From contig NZ_PUEC01000020.1 of assembly GCF_003024805.1 (NCBI RefSeq), forward strand, positions 1 to 64,000: a stretch of 64,000 bases of DNA, read 5' to 3'. The notes below the pieces were generated by a model. It ran no database searches and was not told the DNA's origin. It worked only from the letters and a program-made list of their open reading frames with translations. The position numbers were made by a program, and so were the translations under genes. Shown piece after piece: positions 14,992 to 43,891 of this stretch (its first letter is position 1; every line of letters begins with the position of its first letter). This stretch comes from Duncaniella muris (GTDB taxonomy: Bacteria; Bacteroidota; Bacteroidia; Bacteroidales; Muribaculaceae).

Positions 14992-15008
14992 CACTCAAAA
15001 ATAACATA

Positions 15009-15263: not shown

Positions 15264-15285
15264 ACACTATAATAGCAATATAATT

Positions 15286-15327
15286 ATAGACCGAGACAAT
15301 GCTGACAAGGCAATCATCCCGGTCTAT
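15286..15327. terminator. Possible terminator between RHH gene and integrase
   Basis: tagaccgaga and tcccggtcta can pair with one mismatch around a 20-base loop, with A/T-rich sequence on both sides. It lies between two convergent genes 71 bp apart. The loop is long, so support is moderate. Confidence 0.4.
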
Positions 15328-15334
15328 CTTATTA

Positions 15335-16447: not shown

Positions 16448-16482
16448 TGCTTTATGGGGTTTGAGGGTTTGAAAATCAGATA

Positions 16483-16575
16483 CAAAAGTAGCGGGAGAAG
16501 CATGAGAGAACAATGAGTTCTCCAGCAGTCCCAAGGCTTCTCCAAAGTCTCTCTGGAGATTAAATCTCCGGAGAA
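16483..16575 (-). promoter_or_regulatory. Integrase promoter with operators shared with 13471 region
   Basis: Minus-strand -7 box TACTTTTG at 16490-16483. Upstream come ggagaa (16494) and gagaacaatgag (16505-16516), at the same distances from the -7 box as in the promoter at 13471. Further upstream are ttctcca, tctccaaag and the hairpin ctctggagat / atctccggag (16551-16560, 16564-16573). The end of the four-HTH gene overlaps this region. Confidence 0.6.
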
Positions 16576-19620: not shown

Positions 19621-19628
19621 GCCCGTAA

Positions 19629-19949
19629 TTATTTTTTCGCGGAATGGCGAACACGTTGTGCCTTTTTCTCATTGTCGTTATACATATAAGGTGATTCGGG
19701 CAATTCTGGCAGCAGTGTATCCCAGTTCTCTCCAAGACCAATTGTCTTTAATAGTCTCAGAAGAGTACTGAACGAAATGTCAGTCATATTGCCGGACTCA
19801 AATCTATAGAGTGTGGTCATGCCGATAGATGCCGCTTCGGAAACCTCCTTACGGGTCATGCGCAACCGCAACCTGTAATCACGAAACCTCATGCCGAGAT
19901 TCCTGATTACATCAGGCGTAGCCAATGATTTGTTCGTAAATGTCACCAT
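19629..19949 (-). CDS. hipB: HipB-type XRE antitoxin/repressor (module 1)
   Basis: 106 residues with an XRE-type HTH: MRFRDYRLRLRMTRKEVSE, then IGMTTLYRFESGNMTDISFSTLLRLLKTIG. Lies directly upstream of hipA as in most hipBA operons, and would neutralise HipA and repress the operon. The promoter has TAACTTTG at 20009-20002 with TTTG 20 bp further upstream (20033-20030), and a 12-bp perfect palindrome ctaatatattag at 19964-19975 between promoter and start, the likely HipB operator. Confidence 0.85.
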   Translation of the reverse strand: MVTFTNKSLATPDVIRNLGMRFRDYRLRLRMTRKEVSEAASIGMTTLYRFESGNMTDISFSTLLRLLKTIGLGENWDTLLPELPESPYMYNDNEKKAQRVRHSAKK

Positions 19950-19963
19950 AATGATATTTATAC

Positions 19964-20033
19964 CTAATATATTAGTATAACACTCCGCAGAATGATATTT
20001 ACAAAGTTAGGCATAAAATCCCATACGACCAAA
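19964..20033 (-). promoter_or_regulatory. hipBA module 1 promoter and palindromic operator
   Basis: Minus-strand TTTG (20033-20030), 20 bp, TAACTTTG (20009-20002), then the palindrome ctaatatattag (19964-19975) overlapping the 5' leader. Confidence 0.7.
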
Positions 20034-20148
20034 TTTATTGCGCTTTATTGCGGATTTCCGGATTGATGGAGAGTGGTAAAATTGGTATATTTAAAGTTCA
20101 TCCTAATGCACTGACGATGTGATTTGAACCGATGTATATCATTACAGG

Positions 20149-21402
20149 CTATTCAATCCATTTATCAAATCGGGGTGCAAACATGTCTATGTCGCGCTGT
20201 GGTAGTCCTAGTCTGCTGGCTTCTGTGCGCCACGATTTCATGGCAGATTTTACTTTGTTGATAATACACTTGGCTTTGTCAGCTGAAAGCATATATTCTC
20301 CAGCGGATGCCAATAGGATAGTGAGGTCGGATTCGCTTGTGGAGCGGTTAATCAGCAGGCTTTGATTATTGGCGAGGGTCGGGTTGATGTCGTATGCCGG
20401 GGAAAGTTCCCAGCCTTTGCGTGTCAGGAGAAATCCGTGATTGCGGAAATGGTCGTCGGAGTTACCAACAATGATGTAGAATGCCACACGACGATATAGT
20501 TCCTCTAAGTTTCGCTCTACATTGCTGCCGTGCTGAACTATGAAATCGACAATGTCAGTGTAGCCATATCCGGTTGAAGCGTTGTCGCCGTCGGTCAATC
20601 CGAGCAATGTCAATGCGGAAGCGAAATGCATTCGTCTGCCGTCGCTGTTTCTATCGAAACGCTTTGAGAGAAGGGTGTGGTAATCTTCGCCGTTGATTGT
20701 TCGTGTCTCGGCAACATTCAGTCCGGCTTTGCGCCCCATTATATGGCAGAAATGCTCCCATTGGGCGACGTCATAATCATCCTTGCGCGATGGAAATTTC
20801 GCGACTGTCAGACTGCCATCCTCATCAATGACAGAAGCCTTCGGTCTGGCACCACCGAGGGACGTTCCAGGATGCAACAGTTGCGCCAGCCATTTCTTTG
20901 ACGGCAATAGATGTTTCTCCTCGCTAAGTTCAATTTCATGTGCTGCCCGCATCAATTCCCTGACATTCGCCAATGGCGGCACACGGAGACTTTCCTCACA
21001 GTTGATGAACTTTCCCCCGGGCGTTTCGGCAAATCGGAAACCACCCATGCGTGAAGCATCATCAATTCCCATCAGATAATCAAAAGAAGTCAATCTGCGC
21101 ACGGCTCTCTTTTCATCGGCGGCTGCAATCTGCTCCCGACGGTTCAGCAATGTGCGTCCCCATCGGTCGGGTAGAGCATCCGAGAAACAAGCGAAAATAT
21201 CGCGCTCCGGTCGGGTGTATTGGATGCCGGTATAATTCTGCAAATCCTCACTGAGAAAAACATCGCCATATTTGGCAAGCCACTCTTTATCATACGAAAA
21301 GCCGTATGTCTCGCTGCCGCGCACCGAGTCGCAGGAAAGCTCGCCGATCAGTTGGGGCGTATCAAGCCAATCAAAGTCGGCATAAATACATAATTTCTTC
21401 AT
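20149..21402 (-). CDS. hipA: HipA-family kinase toxin (module 2)
   Basis: 417 residues, of a HipA subfamily distinct from the other two in the window. Seen: SDALPDRWGRTLLNRRE near 75, the glycine-rich PGTSLGGARPKASV near 180, VGNSDDHFRNHGFLL near 315 (catalytic Asp and metal site), LSPAYDINP near 335. It starts 3 bp after hipB. The 115 bp between its end and the module 1 promoter hold nothing I can identify. Two hipBA operons therefore stand head to tail on the same strand. Confidence 0.87.
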   Translation of the reverse strand: MKKLCIYADFDWLDTPQLIGELSCDSVRGSETYGFSYDKEWLAKYGDVFLSEDLQNYTGIQYTRPERDIFACFSDALPDRWGRTLLNRREQIAAADEKRAVRRLTSFDYLMGIDDASRMGGFRFAETPGGKFINCEESLRVPPLANVRELMRAAHEIELSEEKHLLPSKKWLAQLLHPGTSLGGARPKASVIDEDGSLTVAKFPSRKDDYDVAQWEHFCHIMGRKAGLNVAETRTINGEDYHTLLSKRFDRNSDGRRMHFASALTLLGLTDGDNASTGYGYTDIVDFIVQHGSNVERNLEELYRRVAFYIIVGNSDDHFRNHGFLLTRKGWELSPAYDINPTLANNQSLLINRSTSESDLTILLASAGEYMLSADKAKCIINKVKSAMKSWRTEASRLGLPQRDIDMFAPRFDKWIE

Positions 21403-21405
21403 GGC

Positions 21406-21726
21406 TTATTCCTTTTTTGATGCTCGTTGGCGATGTTTAAGGCTTAAATCTTGTAGGTTTCTGCCAAGTGTGTCTTCTTTGGCAATCAAAAGAAGATCGT
21501 CATCAAGTTGCAAGGCATAAAGAACACGTGCATAGATGCCGATCGAAACTGTCGGAGAGCCTTTCTCAATGCGATTCACAGTGAGAGGCGAACAAGTCGC
21601 ACGTTCCGCAACCTGCGCAATCGAGAGGTTACGACGCAACCTAGCGAGCTTAATCTGCTCACCCATAAGAGCCATTTTCTGCTCCAGTTTCCGGGGCAAC
21701 TTTGTCCCCATAGTGTTCTTTGCCAT
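21406..21726 (-). CDS. hipB: HipB-type XRE antitoxin/repressor (module 2)
   Basis: 106 residues, XRE HTH at about 24-75 (IKLARLRRNLSIAQVAERATCSPLTVNRIEKG in part), then a basic tail ending RQRASKKE. The first ATG is at 21726. Minus-strand -7 boxes TATCTTTG (21757-21750) and TAACTTTG (21866-21859) give two possible promoters; tatcataagata between the nearer box and the start is a candidate operator. Tail and size fit a HipB partner for the adjacent HipA. Confidence 0.83.
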   Translation of the reverse strand: MAKNTMGTKLPRKLEQKMALMGEQIKLARLRRNLSIAQVAERATCSPLTVNRIEKGSPTVSIGIYARVLYALQLDDDLLLIAKEDTLGRNLQDLSLKHRQRASKKE

Positions 21727-21880
21727 ACTCAATCTATCTTATGATACCGCAAAGATAGTAAAAATATTTATTATATGATATATTGAATGACGAATAATGT
21801 ACCTGTCTTAGTCACTTATCTCTCTAACTATGACTTTAATACCGTGTTACTATGCCGACAAAGTTACTTGAGAACAGGTA

Positions 21881-22924
21881 TTATTTCATGATAACCCACC
21901 TGCCGGTTTTGTCAGACCCTTCTCTCGCAATGTAGCCAAGTTTTTTAAGGTCTCTGGTAGCTCGTTTAGCTGTGGATTCTGAAATATGAAGAGTCTCCAT
22001 TATTTCAGAATGTGTAATCTCCGGATTGTTTAGAATGACCGTATAAACTTTTTGCAAGGATTTCTTTAGTCCTTTTACAGTGTCATTATTTGCGTTTGCG
22101 GTATCATTTACAGTGTCACTTTGGGCATTTACAGTGTCATTTTCTTGATACTGCAAAATTCGGCGGTTGATATTCGCGATATGGTGACGGAGCATAACGT
22201 CCTGTGCGATTGTCGAATCGTCATTCTCACGGCTGTCAACTAATGACTGGATATATTCTCCTTTGTCTTCCTTTCTGACGATGGAAGGAATTAGTCCTAA
22301 CTGACGCTGAATCATATTCATGACCAATCGGGTCGTTCTACCATTACCGTCAACCCACGGATGAATGGTTACCAGCAGGAAGTGTGCTTCAAAACTCAGA
22401 CGATAACATGCCACGATGTTTTCCCTATCCGCAGTGGCAATTTCTTCATTTAGCCAACTACAGAAATCGTCCACGGCGCGTGAAACCTTATTATATGCAA
22501 GATAACTCCTGCCGCCAATACCGGCACTGACATTACATAGGCGAAACTCTCCCTTCGATGAATCGAAATGTCCGGCAATAGTAGAGTATTCGCTTCCGGT
22601 ACGGCGCATAACGAGGGCTGACAGTTGTTGCAATAATTGAGGCGTATATGTAGGATTATCAGTCGCTAACTTGAAAGCATAAAGATAAGCGTCCTTCAGG
22701 TCGACATTCATCATCTGCTCGGTCAGTGATCTTCCTTTTGCGGCAATTCCCTCATCGAAAAGAAGCTGGTTTTCTATTTCGGTGACAGTAGAGCCCTCAA
22801 TCGCCGTGGAGTGGGTCACGATGGAATAGAGGTAGAACTTCTGATAGTCCACCTGCTCCTCGACTCCCGAAGCCCGATAAGCCTTCAGAGTCTTCTCTAT
22901 CTGTTTGTCAAGATTCTGAGCCAT
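21881..22924 (-). CDS. fic: Fic-domain AMP-transferase (with N-terminal inhibitory helix)
   Basis: 347 residues. Fic enzymes transfer AMP or related groups to target proteins. The active-site motif HPWVDGNGRTTR lies near residue 185. An inhibitory-helix motif STAIEGS lies near 36-42, before the Fic core, as in self-inhibited (class II) Fic proteins; its Glu would block ATP. The C-terminus (from about 280) is a winged-HTH (EITHSEIMETLHISESTAKRATRDLKKLG). The first codons overlap the end of the next fic gene upstream by 17 bp, so the two are co-translated. Confidence 0.88.
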   Translation of the reverse strand: MAQNLDKQIEKTLKAYRASGVEEQVDYQKFYLYSIVTHSTAIEGSTVTEIENQLLFDEGIAAKGRSLTEQMMNVDLKDAYLYAFKLATDNPTYTPQLLQQLSALVMRRTGSEYSTIAGHFDSSKGEFRLCNVSAGIGGRSYLAYNKVSRAVDDFCSWLNEEIATADRENIVACYRLSFEAHFLLVTIHPWVDGNGRTTRLVMNMIQRQLGLIPSIVRKEDKGEYIQSLVDSRENDDSTIAQDVMLRHHIANINRRILQYQENDTVNAQSDTVNDTANANNDTVKGLKKSLQKVYTVILNNPEITHSEIMETLHISESTAKRATRDLKKLGYIAREGSDKTGRWVIMK

Positions 22925-24011
22925 AATTTATTACCCATTTGGCGTTATTTTTAGCACCGACGCGGGTCAGCAATCCTTTCTCTTTGAGTGCGCGGATTAT
23001 GCGATCGATTGTGCTTTTGGAGAGACGAGTGTTGGCTGCTATGACTGTAATGGATATGTTTGGATTGTCCTGAATTTGACGTATCACAGCCATCTCTTTC
23101 AGCGAAAGCAGTGCGGATAGTGACGTTTTCAAAACGTCATTTTGAGGTTTAGAGACTTCGTTTTGAGGTTTAGCCCCATCCCAACGGATATGCAACGTGC
23201 GGTTGCGGAGATCAGCGGGGATACCGAAAACTGCGAAATTCATAAATCGCTCCAGCGGCTCGAAAGTGCGGTGAATACCTTTGGGGATATTCTCGTATTG
23301 TGAGCGGACGAGAGCATTGCGGAAGAACCAGGAATGTTTCTCAAAACTCTCGTTATTTACCTCAAAGCCAAAACTTCTTAGATACTTGATAAGGAACACC
23401 GCAGTCGTGCGGGTGTTGCCTTCGCTAAATGCATGAATCTGCCAGATTCCTGAAATGAACCGTACGATATGCCCGATGGCCTCGGAAGAAGAAACAGTAC
23501 TGTAATCAAACTTTTTCTCCTCGCCGAAGTCATAATTAAGAAGTTCCGACAAAGACCCTGCACTACCATAACTGATTGTATCTCCATCAAGAATCCACTG
23601 ATTCTTAGTGATGTTATATGTGCGGAACTGCCCGGCATGAGACAGTACATCTTTGAAAAGAAATCCATGAATACGCGACAGTTCCATCGGAGAGAATGTA
23701 AAAGCCTTCTCTGCCAAAAGAAGATTGATGCGGTCGGCCACTCTGTCAGCCTCAAAAGTACCGTCAGTTTCCGCTTTCTCTCGAACCGACCTCTGGCTAT
23801 AATACTCCTCCAGACGCTTGCCGACCTCCTCGCTAGAAATTCTTCCCTCGATATTGGCTTTAGCCTGTTCAAGCAGAAACTCCGACGGCTTCAACCGGTC
23901 AACATCCTGCAAACCGATAGCCATCGACCAGTTACGCGCACGCTCCTCCACTCCCGGTTCCACGGAAGCAAGGTACTGCTCAAACTCCTTATATCTGTCT
24001 TCGTATGCCAT
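22908..24011 (-). CDS. fic: Fic-domain protein with GNTR active site and C-terminal HTH
   Basis: 367 residues. The Fic motif reads HAFSEGNTRTTA near residue 195, the GNTR variant of HxFx(D/E)GN(G/T)R. An N-terminal helix with AKANIEGRIS near 50-60 is a possible inhibitory element. The C-terminus (from about 300) is a winged-HTH (ISITVIAANTRLSKSTIDRIIRALKEKGLL) similar to that of the next gene. Starts 39 bp after the last of three small paralogous genes and is likely on the same transcript. Targets unknown. Confidence 0.85.
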   Translation of the reverse strand: MAYEDRYKEFEQYLASVEPGVEERARNWSMAIGLQDVDRLKPSEFLLEQAKANIEGRISSEEVGKRLEEYYSQRSVREKAETDGTFEADRVADRINLLLAEKAFTFSPMELSRIHGFLFKDVLSHAGQFRTYNITKNQWILDGDTISYGSAGSLSELLNYDFGEEKKFDYSTVSSSEAIGHIVRFISGIWQIHAFSEGNTRTTAVFLIKYLRSFGFEVNNESFEKHSWFFRNALVRSQYENIPKGIHRTFEPLERFMNFAVFGIPADLRNRTLHIRWDGAKPQNEVSKPQNDVLKTSLSALLSLKEMAVIRQIQDNPNISITVIAANTRLSKSTIDRIIRALKEKGLLTRVGAKNNAKWVINYGSES

Positions 24012-24050
24012 AATCCCAAGACTATTGAATTTTAATAATAGATTGGGAAA

Positions 24051-24407
24051 TTATTTGGAGAAATCCGGTCGTACCATTCTGTCAGTATATATGTGATACC
24101 TATTGTAATAATTCTCAATAGCCCCAGCGTATTGAGACATCAGTAATAAGGCATCGCTTGTAGATGGGATAGTCTCTTCATCTATAAGATCAAGGAAATC
24201 TGATGTCGCCTCATTTTTGAGAAATGTTTTAACTCTCTCTAATATCCGATTTAACATTCTAACTTTCATCAGGCTCAGGGAGTCTTTGGGCGACTTCTTA
24301 GACATATCGCGTAGCTCAACATAAGCAGATTTAAGCATAGCGAAGAGAAGATTATACTCATCCTTAATGTCTAAAGATGAAGCCGAAACTTTTTTAGGTT
24401 GTTTCAT
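24051..24407 (-). CDS. Small protein, tandem family member 3, unknown function
   Basis: 118 residues. No family recognised. Shares with the two genes upstream the scheme KKSPKD...LMKVRMLNRIL, a variable middle, then IPSTSDALLLMSQY, so all three are diverged copies of one ancestral gene. Predicted mainly helical, soluble, no signal peptide. Overlaps its neighbour by 4 bp, so it is translationally coupled to the operon that begins with the type I restriction genes. A/T-rich relative to the core genome. Confidence 0.65.
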   Translation of the reverse strand: MKQPKKVSASSLDIKDEYNLLFAMLKSAYVELRDMSKKSPKDSLSLMKVRMLNRILERVKTFLKNEATSDFLDLIDEETIPSTSDALLLMSQYAGAIENYYNRYHIYTDRMVRPDFSK

Positions 24408-24754
24408 TTCTTTTTAGATTTGGTTATTTTCCACTCTCGTTCTAGGTCCCAGTTACCATGTGTAGTATTATTTAACCAGTACCGTTTGAACGCTTCAAGA
24501 TAAAGTTCAAGAATTAGCAGTGCATCACTATTGGATGGTAGTTCATCCTCTGCAAAAGTGTCAAAATCACTATATGGCTTGACATCCTGAAGTAAGGAAT
24601 TTGCTTGCTGCAAAAGTATGTTGATGCGCCGAATCTTAAAAAGATTAAGATGTTCATCCGGTTTTTTTGATGAGAGCACTTTAACTGTGTCTCGGACTGA
24701 TGTGATTTTGGGCTTCAGTTCTTCGTAAATGTCAATTTCTTTTTGTGTAGGCAT
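24404..24754 (-). CDS. Small protein, tandem family member 2, unknown function
   Basis: 116 residues. Shared scheme: SSKKPDEHLNLFKIRRINILLQQAN, then FAEDELPSNSDALLILELY. The end is very basic (EWKITKSKKK). One base separates it from the preceding gene and it overlaps the following gene by 4 bp. The paralogy to both neighbours is clear by eye in the central KKP...K...N.IL block and the LPSNSDALL block. Confidence 0.65.
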   Translation of the reverse strand: MPTQKEIDIYEELKPKITSVRDTVKVLSSKKPDEHLNLFKIRRINILLQQANSLLQDVKPYSDFDTFAEDELPSNSDALLILELYLEAFKRYWLNNTTHGNWDLEREWKITKSKKK

Positions 24755-24755
24755 A

Positions 24756-25007
24756 TTAAAAACAGTCTTGGTATAATGCTAAAACAAAAAGTACATCACT
24801 ATTTGTTGGCAATGTGTCTGTATTGAATTGAGAGAAACCTTCTATTGGAGATCGTCCCAATTCTTTATTCGCTTCAGCCAATATTTTGTTTACGATATTC
24901 AGTTTGAATTCATTTACTGCGTCGTTCGGTTTCTTCTCCGAAAGGCGACGAAACTCAAATGTGAGTGTTGCTAAAGTTTTATCCATAGACATAATTATTG
25001 AGGGCAT
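24756..25007 (-). CDS. Small protein, tandem family member 1, unknown function
   Basis: 83 residues, the shortest of the three. Shared scheme: SEKKPNDAVNEFKLNIVNKILAEAN in part, then TLPTNSDVLFVLALYQ, ending soon after. ATG 25007 overlaps the PD-(D/E)XK gene by 13 bp; ATG 24992 would avoid overlap. It lacks the C-terminal extension of the other two. Adjacent to the nuclease-like gene, so a partner or immunity role is conceivable but not shown. Confidence 0.6.
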   Translation of the reverse strand: MPSIIMSMDKTLATLTFEFRRLSEKKPNDAVNEFKLNIVNKILAEANKELGRSPIEGFSQFNTDTLPTNSDVLFVLALYQDCF

Positions 25008-26362
25008 AAACGATGAAACTCTACCAGAAGTTTTTTTATTACTTCATAAGGTTTACGCTGTTTGTTTTCGTATAAATCTACCATCAATTGAAGTTCTTCA
25101 TCAGTTATAATCAAGATACATTTTCTTTGGCCAGACCATAAATCTATCAGATGGCGTTTTATTTTTGATGATGGTCGATTTCGAGTTACAATCACGCCGA
25201 ATTTACCAAAGTTCTCATTAAGATACCTATTGACCTGTGCAATATGTTCGCGTGAGATTTCCTTTACATTTTTGAGCTCAAAAACTAATTGATAAGATGA
25301 ATACTTATCAAATATTTCTTTAAAAATCGGTTCCGAACAGTTATTGTAAAAAACGAGATCTCTAATCTGACATCCGCTCTCAGTTCGACTTTGTGTTTGG
25401 GCAAAATCTAACTGAGGATAAAGCAATGTTGCTAATAAGCGACATACTTTTTCCTCATAAATCTTATCAGATTTATCCTGATTTCCTGTGGATAGCTTTT
25501 TTATATCCGCAATGGTTCGTTTTGCGCTTGCTACAGGTATTTGCTTGAACAAAGGATCGCTCTTTAGCTCTTCTGCCGATGCTTCCTTTTGCTTGGTGTA
25601 ACCTTCGACCTGCAGATAATTCAATCTATTATAGTCGATTATTTCTGGACGCGACAGTTTTATTTGGGGATTTGCAGATGGTAAGTACCTATTGAAGAAA
25701 TCATCTGGATTCATCCAAGGCATTTGGCGCAGCCAGCGTTTTGGAATTAGCCAAATCGGGCAGTTCGTTTTAGGGTTTATAGGCAATTCTTTAGATAGCC
25801 TAATAAATTTTTTCTTTTGGGTACTAAATATTTCTGTTTCAACCATTGTCATTGGAATGCCATGACGAACACACTGGTCTTGAGTATAATCTACTAAAAA
25901 GCTAGATAACAAAGAACATGAGATGTCGCTAATTCTGTCTTTTGATATTCCCTCTACTAAAAGTTGTATCTCCTCAAAATGCGTAAAACCACATTCTTTT
26001 AGTTGAGGTATGTCTGTAAATAGATTAAGAATTTGGGTTGCTGATGTTTTCCCAATCCTTTTACCCATTTTGTTTGAAGATGTACCTAACCCAACTTCAC
26101 TGCACTCTGATGCGGAAATAAGAATATCGGTAGCCTGAGCTTCTTTTCCTTGAGAATAAAGCGCTCCCAAATAATTGAAAGAATCAACCAAAGCTCCGTG
26201 AAGACTTGTATCAAGAGATATGTCGGATTTCCAAAGTAAGAACGGGTCCACATATAATGGAAGATCTTCATCTAGAAATGGAATGAAGAAATCGGTTCTC
26301 CCTTGATTAAGGAGAATTTTATGATAGTCATTTAAGCGGGGTCTTAAAATTAGATCTTCCAT
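24995..26362 (-). CDS. PD-(D/E)XK-like protein in the restriction operon
   Basis: 455 residues, not a family I can name. The N-terminal 280 residues are unrecognised (PRLNDYHKILLNQGRTDFFIPF at the start). The C-terminal 150 residues have the outline of a PD-(D/E)XK nuclease fold: acidic residues in QTQSRTESGCQIRDLVFY (about 330-347), then YQLVFELKNVK (about 371-381, the ExK core), then a helix REHIAQVNRYL. It follows hsdR by 9 bp and precedes three small paralogues, on the same transcript. A nuclease or DNA-binding accessory of the restriction system is inferred. Confidence 0.6.
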   Translation of the reverse strand: MEDLILRPRLNDYHKILLNQGRTDFFIPFLDEDLPLYVDPFLLWKSDISLDTSLHGALVDSFNYLGALYSQGKEAQATDILISASECSEVGLGTSSNKMGKRIGKTSATQILNLFTDIPQLKECGFTHFEEIQLLVEGISKDRISDISCSLLSSFLVDYTQDQCVRHGIPMTMVETEIFSTQKKKFIRLSKELPINPKTNCPIWLIPKRWLRQMPWMNPDDFFNRYLPSANPQIKLSRPEIIDYNRLNYLQVEGYTKQKEASAEELKSDPLFKQIPVASAKRTIADIKKLSTGNQDKSDKIYEEKVCRLLATLLYPQLDFAQTQSRTESGCQIRDLVFYNNCSEPIFKEIFDKYSSYQLVFELKNVKEISREHIAQVNRYLNENFGKFGVIVTRNRPSSKIKRHLIDLWSGQRKCILIITDEELQLMVDLYENKQRKPYEVIKKLLVEFHRLCPQ

Positions 26363-26371
26363 ATTTCTTGA

Positions 26372-29300
26372 TTATTCGATTTCGCCATGTAGAATGAAAT
26401 TACGCAGGAGAGCGTCGAGTTTCATTCTTATTTTGGGCGGGGTTAATATTGCGCCTTCGCGCTGTTGGAAATAAGCTTTGGCAAGCACTGGGCTGACGGA
26501 TGCTTTCAGCCGAGTGTATCGTCCAAACTCATCGATGTTGTTCTCATTGAGGCGAGCATTGGCCATCTCTTTCAGCAACTCGGCATCTAATCCGAAATTC
26601 TGAGCAAGAGTACGGATTTTGCCCTCCTGCGCCTTATTCATATAATCAATGATGTAGTCGTGGAATGACTTGCAGATGTTATATTTAAGATTGCCCGACT
26701 GAACATCTATTAGGAATTGATTGGCATAGCGTTGCTCTTCTTGCGATAGGAAGGCAAACGATTTATGCACTTCGTCAAGCAACTTCTGAAGTCTTTCCTC
26801 GTCTAAAACATCTTTGCGCAATTCCTTGAGATATTTCTCAAAGCGACTATTCATATAGTCATAGTCGATTGCTCCGGTCTCAATTTCTGTGAGATGGGTA
26901 TCTATCTCATAAGGCAGATTCCCGGGAGAAGAACTACCAGAGCTATCTTCATACAATTCCCGATAACGGGCTTGAAGTGTCTGGAAATCTTCTTGAGTCA
27001 GTACAAGGGAAATTACATCACCATCTTCCGTCTCGTAATTTGATTTATCCCAAGAAAAACCTTGCAATCTTGCTGCGCTAATATGATCAGATAGAGCCTT
27101 GAACAACTTGGCGAATCGTCCTTTTTCGGCATCAATAGAAGGCAGGTGGCTAAAGTTCGCGATATCGGCTGATTCAAACAGCTCTTTTATCTCTATGAAA
27201 ATGTCGTTTATTCGATGAAGATTGTGTGGTAGCCTGTCAACGAACACACCGAACGGTCTACCTCCGGAATACATCCTGATAGCATCATCTATGTTACGCT
27301 TCATTGAATGCACCTTTCGATAGTAACGTATCGTACCGAAGGGTTTCTCCCGCTTGTCCTGCGGACGATTGGTCCGGGATATTGCCTGAATCAAGTCATG
27401 AGCCTGTTCCGGCTTGTAATATTTATCGAGATATAGTGTATTTACCCATTTCGAGTCAAAGCCCGTAAGCATCTGGTTGACCACTATCAGAATGTCTATC
27501 TGCTGGCCCGGTTCAAGATGCTTATAAGCCTCTTTATGAGCAAGACGGTTAGACATATCCTTTTTCATGGCAGCATAGATAGCCACTTCATATTTTTTGC
27601 CAAATGTGGTATTGTATTCGCCAATTATCAATTTAAGCGCAGCCTCTTTATCAAAGCCGTTTCCACTTTCATCAATATTTGGGTCAAAAAGTGAAGTGAC
27701 ATTGAGTTGGGGAGCCTTTGCACGAAGTAGTTTGAAATACTCCACAGCTTCCTCTATGCGGCTTGTGGCAAGAATAGCATGGTACTTGCGATTGCGGCTT
27801 AATAGAGTAAATCTCTTTATGATGTTATCAACGACTTTCTCTCGATGCTCCGGTCGATCATACTGAGTGCGCGAAAGATAGTCTTCGATACCTTTGCTTA
27901 ACTCTCCATTGGATTGCATCTCACCGGCCATCGGAACATCGTCCATGTATTTCAAATAAATCGTCTTCTTGTCATCATCACCTAGTGCTTCTTCCTCTGT
28001 ATGTGCCTTTGCTTTTTCAAGAGCAACAGCTTTTCGCAAATCTATGTCATCATAAGTGGGACACATCACTGGATTAAATCCCAGCACATTGCCGTCCCTG
28101 ATACCGTCGGGCATAACATATCGGTGCAGTTCGTCGCCGAATAGAGAGACAGTGGTGTTCATGTTCTTTTCATATTCCGGCATAATCGGTGTACCGGTAA
28201 ATCCGAAGAACAGTGCCATCGGGAAAGTTTCTCTGATGGTTGGATACATCTCTCCGAAAACAGAGCGGTGTGCTTCGTCAACGATAAACACAATCTTCTT
28301 AGCCCGAATCTGCTCCAGCTCGTTTTTTCGCTGTTGCATATTCTCCTCATTGACACGGCTCATCTTCTGAATGGACGTGACAATAAGTTTATCCTTTGAA
28401 TCGGAGCTTTTCAGTTTGGCGATTAGCTTGTTGGTGTTGCTGGTGTCCTGAACGGTATCTTCCTCGGCAAAGCCCGAATATTCTTTGTAGCTTTGGTCTC
28501 CGAGTTCAATGCGGTCAACGAGGAACACCACTTTTTCAGCGTCATCATTAGATTGGGCTATCAGCTGAGCACTCTTGAAACTGGTCAATGTCTTGCCGCT
28601 GCCTGTGGTATGCCATATATGTCCGCCAAGCTGGTCTGACACCTTCCAGTTATGTTGCTGAACCTTTTGAAATATGCTTCTTGCGGCGTAATACTGGTAA
28701 CTGCGCATGACCTTCAATATGCCGTCGCCTTTGTCCGGGACAGTGTAATATCCTATGAGCTGATGTGCCATAGGAATAGACAACAGAGTCTCTGCAATAT
28801 CGGGCCAATCATTTATCAATTCGTTATTGAAGTCTGCCCAATGAAAGAAGAAATCTGGATTGAATTTGCCATCTGGTCCGGGATTTGCAAAATACAGTGT
28901 CTCTTCCGGATTCATCGCGACAAATATCTGGACGAGAGAGAATATACCATCGAATACGCCCGTCCGCATATATCTTTCAATCTGGTTGCAAGCATTTCTG
29001 ACTGGAACTCCTGAGCGTTTCAACTCCACATGGATTAACGGCATACCGTTTATGAGCAGCGTGAAATCGCCCCGTCGTTCGCCCAATATCTGGGAATTGG
29101 TTGTAAACTTAGGCTGACGGGCTATTTGATAAACCGTATCATTAGAACCGATTTTTTGCTTATCATATACGATAAGGCTGACAGTTTTACCATTATGTAG
29201 TGTATCATTGGCGTTATCGCGGATAATCGACACGCTTTTGCCATTGATAAATTCGCTATTCAGACGCAATGGTGTACGGAGGTCCATCACTTGCTGAAGA

Positions 29301-29506
29301 ACCTGCTGCATCTCTCCATCAGTTAAAGGACAGCCATTCAGACAGTCTATGCCATTATTTATTTTTGAGAGTATCTGCCGCCAGTTCTCAATAAGATCTG
29401 CTTCCGTGGGGTACATCAATACGGGTTGTTGCCCCCAACCCTTACGGCGGAGAGCCTCAACCAATGCCACCTCAAATGGGGTCTCTTTATTAAATTTCTC
29501 TGCCAT
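26372..29506 (-). CDS. hsdR: Type I restriction enzyme HsdR
   Basis: 1044 residues, the motor and nuclease subunit that translocates and cuts unmodified DNA. Seen: N-terminal nuclease domain with RRGDFTLLINGMPLIHVELKR (about 140-160, Asp and ExK), helicase motif I TGSGKT near 306, DEAH-type VDEAHRSVFGE near 410, motif III FGFTGTP near 440, and motif VI-type AISRTNRPQ near 715. Full usual length. Followed 9 bp later by the PD-(D/E)XK gene and preceded 3 bp by hsdS. No frameshift seen. Confidence 0.93.
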   Translation of the reverse strand: MAEKFNKETPFEVALVEALRRKGWGQQPVLMYPTEADLIENWRQILSKINNGIDCLNGCPLTDGEMQQVLQQVMDLRTPLRLNSEFINGKSVSIIRDNANDTLHNGKTVSLIVYDKQKIGSNDTVYQIARQPKFTTNSQILGERRGDFTLLINGMPLIHVELKRSGVPVRNACNQIERYMRTGVFDGIFSLVQIFVAMNPEETLYFANPGPDGKFNPDFFFHWADFNNELINDWPDIAETLLSIPMAHQLIGYYTVPDKGDGILKVMRSYQYYAARSIFQKVQQHNWKVSDQLGGHIWHTTGSGKTLTSFKSAQLIAQSNDDAEKVVFLVDRIELGDQSYKEYSGFAEEDTVQDTSNTNKLIAKLKSSDSKDKLIVTSIQKMSRVNEENMQQRKNELEQIRAKKIVFIVDEAHRSVFGEMYPTIRETFPMALFFGFTGTPIMPEYEKNMNTTVSLFGDELHRYVMPDGIRDGNVLGFNPVMCPTYDDIDLRKAVALEKAKAHTEEEALGDDDKKTIYLKYMDDVPMAGEMQSNGELSKGIEDYLSRTQYDRPEHREKVVDNIIKRFTLLSRNRKYHAILATSRIEEAVEYFKLLRAKAPQLNVTSLFDPNIDESGNGFDKEAALKLIIGEYNTTFGKKYEVAIYAAMKKDMSNRLAHKEAYKHLEPGQQIDILIVVNQMLTGFDSKWVNTLYLDKYYKPEQAHDLIQAISRTNRPQDKREKPFGTIRYYRKVHSMKRNIDDAIRMYSGGRPFGVFVDRLPHNLHRINDIFIEIKELFESADIANFSHLPSIDAEKGRFAKLFKALSDHISAARLQGFSWDKSNYETEDGDVISLVLTQEDFQTLQARYRELYEDSSGSSSPGNLPYEIDTHLTEIETGAIDYDYMNSRFEKYLKELRKDVLDEERLQKLLDEVHKSFAFLSQEEQRYANQFLIDVQSGNLKYNICKSFHDYIIDYMNKAQEGKIRTLAQNFGLDAELLKEMANARLNENNIDEFGRYTRLKASVSPVLAKAYFQQREGAILTPPKIRMKLDALLRNFILHGEIE

Positions 29507-29509
29507 AAC

Positions 29510-30730
29510 TTATACAAACATTTTATCGAGCATAGCTTGTTTCAAATTTCGCAACTTATCCAACTTTTGCTCGTTAAGCTGGATAAGTCGGTCATATCCT
29601 GATAAGATGTCTGAAATTGCTTTTTGCTCTTTCTCGGCTGGAACAAGCATTTTATATTCGAGCATCTTGTCAATTTTTAGCACTCTGTTACGTCCGGCAC
29701 TTCCTGGAGATGCCAGTGTTAGATGCTTCCTAAATCGATTGTTAATTAAGGCATAGCGAAAGAATATCGGCACATTCTTCTCTTTAAATGAAAATTGTGG
29801 GAAACGATGGGACACTAATTTCCCCTCATCGGATGGTTCCGTTATGGCAACGGCTAACTCCCATCCGAAAGTAATGTTTACAATCAGATTGTTAGGACGT
29901 ACTACACCCATCTGTGCAGTTTCAAGTTCTGCTCCTTTCGGTACGTAACTGTGAAATGTACCTTTGCCATGACTCCTTATGCCTAACCGGTCATAACCAT
30001 CATGAGGGGTTTCTACAATTTCTTTATAAGGAGTAATGATTTCATCAAGACTTTTTTCTGTCCATGCTTCAGTAAATCCATCTAATCTAACACGAGGCTT
30101 AGTTTCTTCTCCTTGAGGTAAAAGAGATGTGAGCAATGCAGCTCTTAAGTTGCGTAATTTTTCACAAACATCCACTTGATGAGAAATCAGCGCATCAATA
30201 TTTTTGAATGATTCCGTTATCTTAACCTGTTCATCTCTCTTCGGGAAAATTACATTCCCTAATATTGCCTCATCATCTCCGACATTGAGAGTATTCTTAG
30301 CTCCTTTGTGAACAAGTGGGCGAAGATAATCATTCAGACGTTTATCTTTATCAAAGAATGTCTGAATGAAATCAGGCTCAATATTGTCGTTTGGATGATA
30401 TATAGCATAGAGCGCAGACACAATTCCAGGAACACCTTTGTTGGTTTTAATAATTCCGTATGGTTGATCTCTCAAGGGTGATTTGGTATATATAATGTCA
30501 TTTGTTTCCGCAATACCATAGCCAGTTACGGAAGCACCGGCAAATGAACGTCCTTGGTATTCTATCTGGTTGATAACACCAAATTCACGAGATACAGACA
30601 ACACATCTTCTTTACCAAACGTATTGTCTCGGTTTTTAGCTTTGGACGTTGTCAGATATTCGGACAAAGGCAATTTGTCCCAATCCCCTTCAAATCCGGC
30701 AAAACGTATTTCAGGAACTTTACTTGCCAT
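29510..30730 (-). CDS. hsdS: Type I restriction specificity subunit HsdS (element A)
   Basis: 406 residues with two TRDs (about 15-150 and 225-350) and spacers VDVCEKLRNLRAALLTSLLPQGEE near 185-208 and LIQLNEQKLDKLRNLKQAMLDKMF at the end; the repeated KLRNL(R/K) blocks are the conserved HsdS spacers. Different lineage from the hsdS locus in element B. No inverted half-gene, recombinase or 14-bp site lies nearby, so this specificity appears fixed. Overlaps hsdM by 11 bp. Confidence 0.92.
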   Translation of the reverse strand: MASKVPEIRFAGFEGDWDKLPLSEYLTTSKAKNRDNTFGKEDVLSVSREFGVINQIEYQGRSFAGASVTGYGIAETNDIIYTKSPLRDQPYGIIKTNKGVPGIVSALYAIYHPNDNIEPDFIQTFFDKDKRLNDYLRPLVHKGAKNTLNVGDDEAILGNVIFPKRDEQVKITESFKNIDALISHQVDVCEKLRNLRAALLTSLLPQGEETKPRVRLDGFTEAWTEKSLDEIITPYKEIVETPHDGYDRLGIRSHGKGTFHSYVPKGAELETAQMGVVRPNNLIVNITFGWELAVAITEPSDEGKLVSHRFPQFSFKEKNVPIFFRYALINNRFRKHLTLASPGSAGRNRVLKIDKMLEYKMLVPAEKEQKAISDILSGYDRLIQLNEQKLDKLRNLKQAMLDKMFV

Positions 30731-33323
30731 GATTAAGGAGATTTTTAAATGATTCCAATGCCTTCATGTCAAAGTCGTTTCCCCGCAAAGAGACTACCAT
30801 ATCCGAAAGTTTTGATTCCGATTCAGATATTGATTTTTCTACATCATTGAGAGTAACAGCATATTTGACAACGAGAGCCTCAACCTTATCAATGAGGGAA
30901 GTGATGACGTTGGTGTGCTCTGCCTTAACCGCATCAACCACGGGCATAATCCATTTTAGGCGAAGAAGTTCGCGTATTTGCTCTTCCGTGAGTGACTCGA
31001 TTGTAAATATCGTCTTTTCTTCAAGCTCTCGTAAAGCATCCTTTACTTCTGCCTTCAGCCTCTTTTGCTCATCTGCATTTTTGGTAAGAGTTACAACGTG
31101 AGCCTCTATGCTCCCTTCCGGAAAGTCTGGTAAATCAGTATATTTCCGCTTCTTATACTCTTTGAGCATGAGTTTGAGTTGGACTTTAACCTTTTTATTA
31201 TCAAATGCATCTCCGTCTTCATTGAGGATTTCAGCATCATCTTCTCCTGTTTCTTCTAACAGGGCTGATACTTCACCAACGGTCTCTGCAAGTTGTTCCT
31301 GCAATTCATTGACTCTATCGAGATATTCGGGGAGAAGAGTCTTCTGTACAAGTTTAAAGGGCATGATGCGTCCTTTCCACCCTTTCTGGATCTCGTCCTC
31401 ATCTTCGCCATTCTTGACCATGACCATGTTGGGTTCAATCTTTCTAAGGACTTCTCGCCCTTCTGTCTGGATGATTTCAATATCTGTTGCCGTCTGTTCC
31501 CAGCAATCGCTAAGTGCCTGAAATGCCGCATAGCGGTCGAGCAACGGAACGGAGGAAAGACGATTGAAAAGGTCCTCGCCGAGAATGTCAACCTCTTTGG
31601 CAACATTGAGTGTCATCATCCCATAAATGAGTTGGGCGATGAGATATTGTTCGTAATCGCCAAAAGCAGAATTATACGCTGCTTGGAATTTCTTTATATC
31701 ATCATGATTCCGAATGGTGTCACCAACATTGTCTGACAGACATTCCACATATTCACCTTCAGGGAACAAAGTGGATTTCAAGGCAGGCATTACCTCCCAA
31801 TAATCTTTGAGTAGTTCGATTTCAGTACGAGGCACACCGCCGAGAAGCGAAGAGTATAAATCCCATTTCTCAACAGCGTCAGAGGAATCGACATATTTGG
31901 GTATATTGAGGTCGTATTCGTTTTCGAGAATCTCTTTCAGGCTCACGAGACGTGCGAATTTATCAATGGAGGCAGGGCGGGTGGTTACGGCATCAAAAAT
32001 TCGCTTAATATCAGAAGCTTGGAGTTTCTTTTTCTTACCATCCTTAGAAGCATATTTTGAGGCATCAATAAAAAGCACGTCTGTGTTATCACGATTGGCT
32101 TTCAGCACCATAACAATAGTGGCAATCGGAGTCCCGAAGAAAATATCAGCCGGGAGTCCAATTATTGCCTCAATTTTGTTCTGCTCAATTAGATTCCTTC
32201 GGATTTCGGCTTCATCACCGGGTCTGAACAGTACACCATGAGGCAACACGATAGCCATAATACCATCGGATTTTAGGTGGTAGAGATCGTGAAGCAGAAA
32301 AGCATAGTCTGCTTTCTTTTTCGGGGCTAATCCATAATCCTTATATCTGGGGTCGGAATCCTTATCGGATGGCCTATCCCATTCCTGAGAATAAGGCGGA
32401 TTGCTGACCACGGCATCCATCGGACGGTATTCGTAAGAGGTTTCCTTGTCATCGTCCTCAAACATAGGCCAATCACTACCATGCTCCAGAGTGTCGCCGT
32501 TGCGGGTGATGATGTTGTTTGGTTTAATGCCGCGCATCACCAAGTTCATGCGCGTGAGGTTGTAGGTGTTGCGCTTCAACTCCTGTGCGTAATATTTGAT
32601 ATTGTCCGGACTGTCGTTGTGTTTCGCAACGGCACGTCCAATTGTAATGAGCAGGGAGCCGGAACCACTTGTTGGGTCATAAATCTCAATCTTCTCTCTG
32701 TCGCGCAGATGATGAGCCACAATCTCGGCCATGAGTACAGATACCTCGTGTGGAGTATAGAACTCTCCAGCTTTCTTACCGGCCGAAGCCGCGAAATTGC
32801 TGATGAGATATTCGTATATGTAACCAAGGACATCATATCCCTGATTGCCATCCATCGGAATGTCTTTAATAAGCTGTATCAGTTTGCTGATTGCCGAGGA
32901 ACGGGTAGTATCGGAATCACCAAGATTTTTCAGCCCTGTCTCAAGAGTGTCGAAAATGCCGGAGAATACTTTCTTGTGTGTCGGATAAATCAGACGGTTG
33001 AAAGCAGACAAGGCTTCCGAAACATCCTTCACGCCAAAGTCATTTCCCTTATTCAGCCATGTGCTGAACAGATTCTTGTAGCCGATGAAATATCCACGAT
33101 TCTTGCGGACATACTCCGTATATTCCGGGTCAATATCTTCTTCGAGTGACGGCATATCTTCGTCGCTCCAGCCTTCAGTGCGATAGAAATTTTCAATCTC
33201 AGTGCTCAGATAGCGATAGAAAATGAAGCCCAGAATATAGTCCTTATATTCGTTGGCCTCAATCTTCGAGCGCATCTTGTTGGCCGAAGCCCATATTTTA
33301 GAAGCGAGTTGCTGCTTATTCAT
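30720..33323 (-). CDS. hsdM: Type I restriction methyltransferase HsdM
   Basis: 867 residues. N-terminal HsdM helical domain (QQLASKIWASANKMRSKIE), AdoMet-binding motif DPTSGSGSLL near 217, catalytic NPPYSQEW near 309, giving adenine-N6 methylation with HsdS. The C-terminus is extended by about 300 residues compared with short HsdM proteins and ends in coiled-coil (about 660-860), as in the longer EcoR124-like Bacteroidales forms. Starts 3 bp after the XRE-ImmA regulator. Confidence 0.93.
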   Translation of the reverse strand: MNKQQLASKIWASANKMRSKIEANEYKDYILGFIFYRYLSTEIENFYRTEGWSDEDMPSLEEDIDPEYTEYVRKNRGYFIGYKNLFSTWLNKGNDFGVKDVSEALSAFNRLIYPTHKKVFSGIFDTLETGLKNLGDSDTTRSSAISKLIQLIKDIPMDGNQGYDVLGYIYEYLISNFAASAGKKAGEFYTPHEVSVLMAEIVAHHLRDREKIEIYDPTSGSGSLLITIGRAVAKHNDSPDNIKYYAQELKRNTYNLTRMNLVMRGIKPNNIITRNGDTLEHGSDWPMFEDDDKETSYEYRPMDAVVSNPPYSQEWDRPSDKDSDPRYKDYGLAPKKKADYAFLLHDLYHLKSDGIMAIVLPHGVLFRPGDEAEIRRNLIEQNKIEAIIGLPADIFFGTPIATIVMVLKANRDNTDVLFIDASKYASKDGKKKKLQASDIKRIFDAVTTRPASIDKFARLVSLKEILENEYDLNIPKYVDSSDAVEKWDLYSSLLGGVPRTEIELLKDYWEVMPALKSTLFPEGEYVECLSDNVGDTIRNHDDIKKFQAAYNSAFGDYEQYLIAQLIYGMMTLNVAKEVDILGEDLFNRLSSVPLLDRYAAFQALSDCWEQTATDIEIIQTEGREVLRKIEPNMVMVKNGEDEDEIQKGWKGRIMPFKLVQKTLLPEYLDRVNELQEQLAETVGEVSALLEETGEDDAEILNEDGDAFDNKKVKVQLKLMLKEYKKRKYTDLPDFPEGSIEAHVVTLTKNADEQKRLKAEVKDALRELEEKTIFTIESLTEEQIRELLRLKWIMPVVDAVKAEHTNVITSLIDKVEALVVKYAVTLNDVEKSISESESKLSDMVVSLRGNDFDMKALESFKNLLNHGK

Positions 33324-33326
33324 GAT

Positions 33327-34409
33327 TTAGTCTCTTCTGAAAGTTTGAAAAGAAGGATTGAAGGCGAAGATTGGTGAATTGTTAAGTATAAACCAGCGTT
33401 TGAAGTCCTCAGGTAAAAGCTTGGCTATTGTGGACAAATCTTCTTCTGAATATCCTAGTTCCGTTTTGTATAATTCTACCACATCATGAACCATATTACT
33501 CCTTTCGTAAGGGAGATTTATTGGTTCACGCTTGTTGTAACCTTTTTTTGAGAAAATGATTTGATAATTACGATATACCTTATCGTCTATCATTTGTAGG
33601 TCTCTCGCTCTTCTGATTAATGCTCGCATGGAGACCCCCCATTGTTGTTTGAGGGTTCCGAGTATAGGCAAGGTTAGTCGCTTTAACAGAGGTTTTATTT
33701 CTTTTTCAGGCATTAAAAACTCTGATGCAAATTCATTTGCTTCATCTTCTACATCTGCGGCTTCTGACGGGATGAAATAATAGTGCATTATAAGATGTCC
33801 TAATTCATGAGCCAGTGAAAAACGCATTCGGTCGTTTGGCATCCGAGTATTTAAGAAAATGACCTTCCGACCATTATCTGTAACAGAAGTAAGACCGTCC
33901 ATTTTCTCCGTGCCGAAATCCATTTTCTGTACAATTATACCATGGTCTTCTAAAAGCACAGTTAAATTGGGTATAGCGCCACGGTGTATGCCTAATACAT
34001 ATTTGATTTGTCTTGCAATATCGGCAGGAGAATTTGTTTCAGTTGGTTGAATTCTAGGCCAATCAAAATCCGGCAATTCTATGGCTTCGAACATCTGGTC
34101 TATAGCCATTTTCTGTACTCGAATCTGTGCGTCGAGCGCATCTTGTAACTTAGCTGGAACAGAAACTTGCTTTCTGTAATACAGATGGCCTATCTGAGAT
34201 TTATCAGTCTGCTGATGGAAGAATGATAAGGGTAAGTTATATACGTCGGGTAAGCGTAAAATGATTTCAGAGGGGAGAGGTTGGAGTCCTTTTTCCGCTT
34301 TGGATAATTTGCCCTGAGACACACCTAAGAGTTCTGCAGCTTCTTTCTGCGTAAACTGTCTTAAGTGGCGAGCCAATTCCAAAAATTGCGGATTCAAAAT
34401 CTCACTCAT
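33327..34409 (-). CDS. XRE-HTH / ImmA-IrrE metallopeptidase regulator
   Basis: 360 residues. An XRE HTH (TQKEAAELLGVSQGKLSKAEKG, about 17-38) is joined to an ImmA/IrrE zinc peptidase with HELGHLIMHYY near 200 and a downstream Glu-rich helix DEANEFASEFLMP. Such proteins sense stress or DNA and cleave a repressor, or regulate their own operon. Second gene of the restriction operon, 6 bp after the first. A candidate control switch for this operon; the target is not visible. Confidence 0.85.
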   Translation of the reverse strand: MSEILNPQFLELARHLRQFTQKEAAELLGVSQGKLSKAEKGLQPLPSEIILRLPDVYNLPLSFFHQQTDKSQIGHLYYRKQVSVPAKLQDALDAQIRVQKMAIDQMFEAIELPDFDWPRIQPTETNSPADIARQIKYVLGIHRGAIPNLTVLLEDHGIIVQKMDFGTEKMDGLTSVTDNGRKVIFLNTRMPNDRMRFSLAHELGHLIMHYYFIPSEAADVEDEANEFASEFLMPEKEIKPLLKRLTLPILGTLKQQWGVSMRALIRRARDLQMIDDKVYRNYQIIFSKKGYNKREPINLPYERSNMVHDVVELYKTELGYSEEDLSTIAKLLPEDFKRWFILNNSPIFAFNPSFQTFRRD

Positions 34410-34415
34410 ATCTCA

Positions 34416-35009
34416 TTATATTGCATCATTTTTCTTAATTTTGAGTTTCGGCTTAACGTGCTCGCCTTCGGTAGGAAGAATAGTAGAAGGAGTGTGCGAA
34501 ATACCCCACCCATCTTCAGGTGTGATAGTAAAACTGTATTCTACGGCATTCCCACGAAGATATTGCACGAATATTCGTGCCACCTCTATTCCCAGAGGAT
34601 CTGTTTCATAGGAAATGGTGATAACGTGTTTAGAGACGTTCTGCTCTCTAATATTTCTGCTTATCCCTGTTGGATTAGTCGGAGCATCTTTCTTTTTTAA
34701 GATGAATATGTAGTCTCCTTTCGTGAAGAATGACCTTTTATTGCCTGCTGAATCTGAGACGAATTCAAACCCTAATGGAGAAAGTTCGGATTCTAAGTAG
34801 TAGTATGTACAGTCATGCGTAATACCCGCCGTCGTGATGGACGTACATTTCCCCTTCAATTGAAGTGCATCACCAAACCCCTTTTGATGTGCAACAAAGA
34901 TTCCCCTCTGGAATTCAGGAGAGATAATCTCGTCTTGAAAATCAGATGCTTCAAAAGGCGGCTTGAACTCGTCAAAGAGAGAATTCGATAAAATATCTGT
35001 TCTTACCAT
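34416..35009 (-). CDS. Unrecognised first gene of the restriction operon
   Basis: 197 residues from ATG 35009; an upstream in-frame ATG at 35096 lies ahead of the promoter and is rejected. No family recognised. Composition suggests a beta-rich soluble protein (SYETDPLGIEVARIFVQYLRG, YSFTITPEDGWGI) with a basic C-terminus (KPKLKIKKND). Its place before the XRE-ImmA protein makes it a possible substrate or partner of that peptidase, by analogy with repressor/ImmA pairs, but it has no visible HTH. Confidence 0.6.
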   Translation of the reverse strand: MVRTDILSNSLFDEFKPPFEASDFQDEIISPEFQRGIFVAHQKGFGDALQLKGKCTSITTAGITHDCTYYYLESELSPLGFEFVSDSAGNKRSFFTKGDYIFILKKKDAPTNPTGISRNIREQNVSKHVITISYETDPLGIEVARIFVQYLRGNAVEYSFTITPEDGWGISHTPSTILPTEGEHVKPKLKIKKNDAI

Positions 35010-35035: not shown

Positions 35036-35066
35036 CAAAGGTATGAAAAATATTCCTATTCACAAA
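35036..35066 (-). promoter_or_regulatory. Promoter of the restriction operon
   Basis: Minus-strand TTTG (35066-35063), 19 bp, TACCTTTG (35043-35036), 27 bp ahead of ATG 35009. It matches the Bacteroidota consensus. No further promoter of this quality was seen down to 24051, consistent with one long transcript. Confidence 0.75.
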
Positions 35067-43113: not shown

Positions 43114-43181
43114 AAACAAATAGTGGATTAAAGATTTTTACGTCTTTATAGACAATTTAACCCACTGTTTTGTTCGTTCAG
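42995..43181. repeat. Duplicated block X (left copy)
   Basis: About 187 bp covering the 5' end of the membrane protein gene and its leader. A close copy (X', about nine-tenths identical by eye) lies at 45908-46096 in the same orientation. The acetyltransferase, third hipBA pair and higA fragment lie between the copies. Confidence 0.8.
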
Positions 43182-43194
43182 GTAAGGCCACAAT

Positions 43195-43860: not shown

Positions 43861-43891
43861 GATTATAGAAATCTTTGCGAAGAAGGATGTA

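What the first reader, a model, noticed from the sequence alone, without database searches (positions are those of the whole stretch)
24051..35009. Eleven-kb operon joining XRE-ImmA control, type I R-M, a PD-(D/E)XK-like protein and three small paralogues
From 35009 to 24051 nine genes run on one strand with gaps or overlaps of -13 to +9 bp and a single good promoter: unknown, XRE-ImmA, hsdM, hsdS, hsdR, PD-(D/E)XK-like, three small proteins; two fic genes follow after 39 bp. A standard type I system needs only R, M and S. The added genes are tightly coupled to hsdR, so this may be a composite defence system with an extra effector or an anti-restriction safety layer.
Basis: partly seen in the sequence, partly recalled or inferred. 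Interest (0 to 1): 0.8.

Follow-up and report, generated by a model that had tools for sequence, protein, structure and literature searches.

The report
Type I restriction operon carrying PDC-M36
A bacterial restriction operon on a mobile element carries two extra ready-made modules, a likely toxin-antitoxin-type pair in front and a nuclease cassette behind, and relatives of both occur without restriction genes elsewhere, so this looks like a stack of separate phage-defence modules rather than one new machine.

Summary
In detail: nine minus-strand genes (35009-24051), gaps of -13 to +9 bp, one strict Bacteroidota-type promoter, two fic genes 39 bp downstream. The extra genes are already catalogued. 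The 455-aa protein matches PADLOC's unvalidated candidate PDC-M36A (E 9e-202), the three small ones PDC-M36B, and the XRE-ImmA protein RmrA, antitoxin of RosmerTA. The 197-aa first gene has one clear relative, directly before an XRE-ImmA gene without type I genes nearby. Of 79 relatives of the 455-aa gene, 70 are followed by two or more small paralogues, 69 in the order B1-B2; 10 of 79 have an hsdM-like gene within 5 kb (a lower bound). In type I loci the cassette sits in different slots, and one HsdR relative carries another candidate, PDC-S68, behind hsdR. The 455-aa model ends in a FokI/BspD6I-like nuclease domain; its D, ExK and Q are invariant in 77 sequences. I read the operon as stacked autonomous modules: RosmerTA-like pair, type I R-M, embedded PDC-M36. 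Trigger, substrate and antiviral activity are untested.

The parts
35036..35066 (-). Bacteroidota-type promoter TTTG-N19-TACCTTTG, 26 bp before the ATG at 35009
   Evidence: pattern scan, (motif recalled)
34416..35009 (-). 197-aa protein, putative toxin or partner of the XRE-ImmA protein
   Evidence: no Pfam, NCBIfam or PADLOC match at E<=1; 27% relative directly upstream of an XRE-ImmA gene without type I genes
33327..34409 (-). XRE-ImmA protein, RmrA (RosmerTA antitoxin) family; HELGH motif in the sequence
   Evidence: PADLOC RmrA E 1.1e-59, capP E 2e-22; Pfam Peptidase_M78 E 4.2e-24; NCBIfam spr1629 E 4.9e-36 but 124.6 bits, under the 335 cut-off
30720..33323 (-). hsdM, type I N6-adenine methyltransferase
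   Evidence: TIGR00497 327.8 bits, cut-off 242.75
29510..30730 (-). hsdS specificity subunit
26372..29506 (-). hsdR endonuclease/translocase
   Evidence: TIGR00348 363.8 bits, cut-off 284.55
24995..26362 (-). PDC-M36A: N-terminal 'DPFLL' region plus C-terminal FokI-like PD-(D/E)XK nuclease domain (D335, E362, K364, Q376)
24756..25007 (-). PDC-M36B, shortened B1 copy (83 aa)
   Evidence: PADLOC E 3.2e-23; similar short form in L026, 51% identity over 73 residues
24404..24754 (-). PDC-M36B, B1 type (116 aa)
   Evidence: PADLOC E 2.1e-26; alignment
24051..24407 (-). PDC-M36B, B2 type (118 aa), predicted helical
   Evidence: PADLOC E 1.5e-32; model pLDDT 86.5
22908..24011 (-). Fic protein 1 with winged helix; 39 bp after the cassette, possibly on the same transcript
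   Evidence: Pfam Fic and HTH_24
21881..22924 (-). Fic protein 2 with winged helix; overlaps fic1 by 17 bp
   Evidence: Pfam Fic and HTH_24

Best explanation
The operon is a stack of self-contained defence modules under one promoter, carried on what looks like a mobilizable element. In front is a RosmerTA-like pair: a 197-aa protein, likely the toxin or trigger partner, and an XRE-ImmA protein, likely the autorepressor/antitoxin that sets expression of the whole operon. Then comes an ordinary type I R-M system that methylates self DNA and cuts unmethylated foreign DNA. Behind hsdR sits an embedded PDC-M36 cassette, A-B1-B1'-B2. A is a nuclease whose C-terminal domain has the FokI/BspD6I-type fold; its N-terminal region and the helical B1 and B2 partners probably form the sensing and holding part, so that A cuts DNA only when infection is sensed. 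Being inside the operon gives the cassette expression and adds a second, methylation-independent layer, much as proposed for TgvAB in the V. cholerae type I operon. Shown: gene content, family matches, the conserved A-B1-B2 unit, the predicted nuclease fold with invariant catalytic residues, and repeated embedding. Inferred: toxin role of the 197-aa protein, one shared transcript, a complex of A with B1 and B2, trigger, substrate and antiviral activity.
For: PADLOC matches for XRE-ImmA, HsdM/S/R, A and B. Conserved unit: 70 of 79 loci with intact A have two or more B genes downstream, 69 in the order B1-B2 (gene strings); distances of A, B1 and B2 correlate (Mantel r 0.59, 0.72, 0.56; 0 of 2000 permutations reach each; 71 loci). 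Embedding in type I loci in several slots: L035 after R, L050 between M and S (-1 bp to A), L067 between S and R (10 bp after S), L030 after S with two genes between. Other cargo behind hsdR: PDC-S68 10 bp after hsdR in L115. GC content falls to 0.358 in 24001-26000 against 0.42-0.44 in windows over hsdR. Nuclease: D335, E362, K364, Q376 invariant in 77 rows, model and fold match. Front pair without type I genes in L118. Precedents read as passages: TgvAB, DarTG2 in a type I operon, RosmerTA, RipAB.
Confidence: 0.6

Rival explanations
1. A and the B proteins are accessory subunits of this type I enzyme, adding cleavage or protecting self DNA (anti-restriction safety layer).
For: Tight spacing to hsdR here (+9 bp) and recurrent presence in type I loci.
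Against: 10 of 79 relatives have a detected hsdM-like gene within 5 kb (lower bound); two full-length plasmid copies have no R-M gene annotated in the stretches fetched; the slot differs between operons; the two HsdR relatives found among 148 genomes besides the window's own (55% and 48%) lack the cassette in the stretches held.
Confidence: 0.1
2. PDC-M36 is a toxin-antitoxin-like suicide module: A is a DNA-cutting toxin for the host chromosome and B1/B2 are its antitoxins.
For: Tightly spaced layout with small helical partners; distant relatives that share A's N-terminal region had no hit to the B2 profile in the short stretches searched, so B is not universal to this N-terminal region.
Against: No toxicity data; two B types rather than one antitoxin; the B1 and B2 tails are both conserved, which a single restraint would not need (inference).
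Confidence: 0.35
3. The 197-aa/XRE-ImmA pair is only a regulator of the R-M operon, and the first gene is a phage-sensing antirepressor, not a toxin.
For: XRE-ImmA and ImmA proteins act on repressors in mobile elements (passage in PMC10440598), and a small repressor leads another type I operon (RptR).
Against: A pair of the same layout stands in L118 with no R-M gene detected in 16 kb by the window's proteins.
Confidence: 0.35

Closest known systems
PDC-M36 (PADLOC-DB 2.0 putative defence candidate)
   Same: A and B proteins match its A and B models
   Different: here it lies in a type I operon with three B genes, and B falls into two paralogue types; no paper naming it was found (0 papers)
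TgvAB embedded in the V. cholerae VPI-2 type I operon (PMC11411939, passages)
   Same: extra defence genes inside a type I R-M operon; [quoted passage not shown]
   Different: TgvAB is GmrSD-like type IV; the Pfam scan of PDC-M36A shows no such domain
RptR-DarTG2-type I island of EPEC (PMC12255303, passages)
   Same: regulator gene first, TA-type system embedded in type I R-M
   Different: other regulator and toxin families
RosmerTA and RipAB (PMC10440598, passages; PMC12795458, outline with abstract and passages)
   Same: XRE-ImmA antitoxin beside a partner gene
   Different: the 197-aa protein matches no PADLOC or NCBIfam model; XRE-ImmA is below the spr1629 model cut-off
FokI and R.BspD6I cleavage domains
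   Different: sequence identity 15% and 10%; no other Pfam domain is found in A, and a recognition domain was not tested for

Membership tests
Type I restriction-modification | HsdM, HsdS and HsdR genes present, open and adjacent | tested here: met
Type I restriction-modification | ATP-dependent restriction and methylation of a bipartite site | not testable with these tools
   needs assay or methylome
PDC-M36 | A component matching PDLC04597/PDLC04598 | tested here: met
   E 9.4e-202 and 1.3e-109
PDC-M36 | adjacent B component | tested here: met
   three genes, best E 3.2e-23, 2.1e-26, 1.5e-32
PDC-M36 | anti-phage activity | not testable with these tools
   candidate only; most PDCs lack validation (PMC12988326, passages)
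RosmerTA | XRE-ImmA (RmrA) antitoxin | tested here: met
   E 1.1e-59; no curated cut-off is given for PADLOC
RosmerTA | adjacent toxin neutralised by RmrA | tested here: inconclusive
   adjacent 197-aa gene and a paired relative in L118; no PADLOC match; toxicity not tested
RipAB (spr1629/spr1630) | antitoxin over the NCBIfam NF052239 cut-off | tested here: not met
   124.6 bits against 335
PD-(D/E)XK nuclease domain of FokI type | core fold with D and ExK residues | tested here: met
PD-(D/E)XK nuclease domain of FokI type | DNA cleavage | not testable with these tools
   needs biochemistry

The most novel reading that the evidence does not exclude
PDC-M36 is a new kind of autonomous anti-phage nuclease: a FokI-like cleavage domain joined to a sensor region (the 'DPFLL' region, which also occurs in single-gene relatives with other PD-(D/E)XK ends) and controlled by an obligate B1-B2 pair of helical paralogues. 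It travels between type I operons as interchangeable cargo, and here it is stacked with a RosmerTA pair, so that phage anti-restriction or loss of R-M would release further layers.
Probability: 0.3. Interest if true: 0.65.

Novelty: new member of a known kind. Interest (0 to 1): 0.42.

Why it matters
It turns an uncharacterised PADLOC candidate into a testable machine with a named nuclease active site, a mostly fixed A-B1-B2 composition and a modular N-terminal region, and it adds a case of stacked defence modules behind one promoter. It also warns that tight operon spacing beside hsdR does not by itself show that extra genes work with the restriction enzyme.

Tried and rejected
Rejected as the main reading: 'extra subunits of this type I enzyme', because most detected copies lie away from type I genes. 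A link to UmuC, suggested by two plasmid copies beside UmuC/DUF4113 genes, did not hold up: IMS_C and DUF4113 each in 2 of 76 upstream neighbours and IMS in 2 of 69 next neighbours, sets that include those two plasmid copies. A constant neighbour: none. No Pfam family exceeded 3 of 76 (nearest upstream), 2 of 69 (next upstream) or 2 of 71 (nearest downstream); with PADLOC the most frequent model was mad2, a methyltransferase model, in 4 of 76.

Led nowhere: search of solved structures with the A profile gave one chance-looking row; fold matches of B2 are generic helical bundles; E. coli genomes had no DNA match to the Proteus hauseri A gene; phage records had two partial matches of 18% coverage; of 97 plasmid records with a match, 3 cover 80% or more of A. 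An N-terminal QLGLF in the L118 relative resembles the sliding-clamp motif (recalled), but the window protein has SNSLF there, so it is a weak lead. A Foldseek search of A was never accepted because the machine was busy. The likely source preprint of the PDCs (Payne et al. 2024, 10.1101/2024.01.29.577857) is not held; I saw only citations of it.

Rows dropped and biases: the genome scan kept 80 of 119 relatives and started from conserved peptide patterns, so it favours close relatives. L074 (A in two ORFs) is not among the 79. The structure alignment of A used the window and 76 of 83 relatives (dropped: L022, L023, L042, L098, L101, L104, L106); that of B2 the window and 56 of 77. The Mantel set left out L029 and L042. 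The neighbour tallies used 76 of 78, 69 of 72 and 71 of 73 neighbours of 100 aa or more. R-M genes were sought with profiles grown from the window's own HsdM, HsdS and HsdR, so unlike R-M types can be missed. No chance expectation for the type I linkage was computed.

Full report
Observation. The two fic genes follow at +39 bp and overlap each other by 17 bp. A strict TTTG-N19-TACCTTTG match lies at 35066-35036; none other lies between it and 20033, and 9 occur in the whole window (Bacteroidota consensus recalled). It favours the ATG at 35009 over the longer ORF that opens at 35096.

Identity of the genes. HsdM and HsdR pass NCBIfam's cut-offs and HsdS matches type I specificity models. The XRE-ImmA protein matches PADLOC RmrA at E 1.1e-59 and, below cut-off, the spr1629 repressor/antitoxin model. 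In print, RmrA is the antitoxin of RosmerTA (PMC10440598, passages) and Spr1629 is RipB of RipAB, whose toxin RipA acts on the sliding clamp (PMC12795458, outline with abstract and passages). The 455-aa protein is PDC-M36A (E 9.4e-202) and the three small proteins PDC-M36B. PDCs are putative candidates found by 'guilt by embedding', most without experimental validation (PMC12988326, passages). A full-text search for 'PDC-M36' found 0 papers. A search for two of 'PDC-M', 'PADLOC' and 'phage defence candidate' found 14 papers, 10 listed; I read passages of three (PMC12988326, PMC12548924, PMC11811056) and the passages shown do not mention M36. Supplements were not read.

The conserved unit. A scan of species genomes found 119 relatives of A, of which 80 were kept; two viral contigs also carry the cassette. 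Of 79 kept loci with intact A, 70 have two or more B genes downstream, 69 of them in the order B1 then B2; 9 have one. L026 has three, with a similarly shortened first copy (51% identity over 73 residues). Distances of A, B1 and B2 rise together over 71 loci (r 0.59, 0.72, 0.56; 0 of 2000 permutations), so the three seem to move as a unit. By record title the hosts include Bacteroidota, Clostridia, Proteobacteria, Chloroflexi, Cyanobacteria and Acidobacteria. The distribution is patchy: at E<=1e-50, 2 of 297 genomes of the window's family, its own included; at E<=0.001 with the PADLOC model, 18 of 395 genomes of the phylum, most of them distant or partial matches.

Relation to type I systems. 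Ten of 79 loci have an hsdM-like gene within 5 kb (12 within 10 kb); hsdS is within 5 kb in 5 and hsdR in 4. Two of the ten hsdM hits are weak (L081 at 1e-9, L099 at 1.5e-6). Only 42 of 79 loci have 5 kb on both sides, so these are lower bounds. Taking ORFs of 100 aa or more as neighbours, in 41 of 79 the same-strand upstream gene ends more than 100 bp away, in 16 it is on the other strand, in 9 it is 31-100 bp away, in 8 within 30 bp, and 5 have none in the locus. The 8 tight ones include L030, L050 and L067 in type I loci. The slot varies: behind hsdR in the window and in L035 (169 bp), between hsdM and hsdS in L050, between hsdS and hsdR in L067, and two genes behind hsdS in L030. Those loci carry further candidates too: a HEC-06/GmrSD-like protein behind the cassette in L067 and a HEC-04-like ATPase before it in L030. 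A partial plasmid copy (L024) lies directly behind a type II PaeR7I-like system. Among 148 related genomes, HsdR relatives at E<=1e-100 occur in 3, the window's included; the other two (55% and 48% identity) lack the cassette in the stretches held, and the second has PDC-S68 10 bp behind hsdR, then a WYL protein and an argonaute-like protein. GC falls to 0.358 in 24001-26000, against 0.42-0.44 over hsdR.

Front pair. The 197-aa gene has matches in 2 of 395 phylum genomes, the window's and G026's. In G026 one base separates the 191-aa relative (27% identity) from an XRE-ImmA gene (E 1e-99 to the window's), and no type I gene was detected in 16 kb with the window's proteins. RmrA-like genes occur in 27 of 296 phylum genomes at E<=1e-40. 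Proteins of similar size precede XRE-ImmA genes in L120, L125, L127 and L134; L127 and L134 are related to each other (E 7e-11), but the link of L125/L127/L134 to the window protein is weak and L120 shows none. An XRE-ImmA-like gene lies within 5 kb of the PDC-M36 cassette in 2 of 79 loci, so the two modules are not a standing pair.

Conclusion. The operon is best read as stacked, separately mobile defence modules: RosmerTA-like pair, type I R-M, embedded PDC-M36, perhaps followed by Fic proteins. Similar stacking is documented: TgvAB in a V. cholerae type I operon protects without HsdR's restriction, though 10- to 100-fold less when taken out of the cluster against several phages (PMC11411939, passages), and DarTG2 with the repressor RptR in EPEC (PMC12255303, passages). 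What A senses and cuts, and what B1 and B2 do, is open.

Noticed in passing
about 6739-17459 and 18124-50272: Two related mobilizable elements seem to lie in tandem: relaxases at 8391 and 36415, a DUF3987 protein at 39105 with a related stretch at 12250, and related integrase regions at 15334 and 48185 (DNA identity 66-76%). The operon would be cargo of the second. Ends are not determined; no direct repeat of 16 bp or more links 50250-50700 to the rest of the window.
   Followed up: partly
210-4870: hsdS-like genes by eye (210-1511, 1471-2043, 4109-4870) around a recombinase-like gene by eye (2097-3089), with an inverted repeat (702-737 / 1521-1486, 94%) and direct repeats (723-844 / 4088-4209, 87%): looks like a phase-variable type I specificity locus.
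   Followed up: no
18124-21732 and 43892-45570: Three HipA_C genes, each with a small XRE-like gene (by eye) next to it.
   Followed up: no
42979-47508: Repeated blocks of about 170-200 bp, 86-88% identical (42979/45893 and 45622/47336), of unknown nature.
   Followed up: no
L012 1-1968: A PDC-M36A-like nuclease end is joined to an N-terminal half with a QueC-like FSGGLDS motif (motif recalled), so the nuclease end is modular too.
   Followed up: no
L115 1-6868: Type I operon with PDC-S68, a WYL protein and an argonaute-like protein behind hsdR.
   Followed up: no
L106, L107: The A-B1-B2 cassette occurs on two IMG/VR viral contigs of about 67 kb.
   Followed up: no
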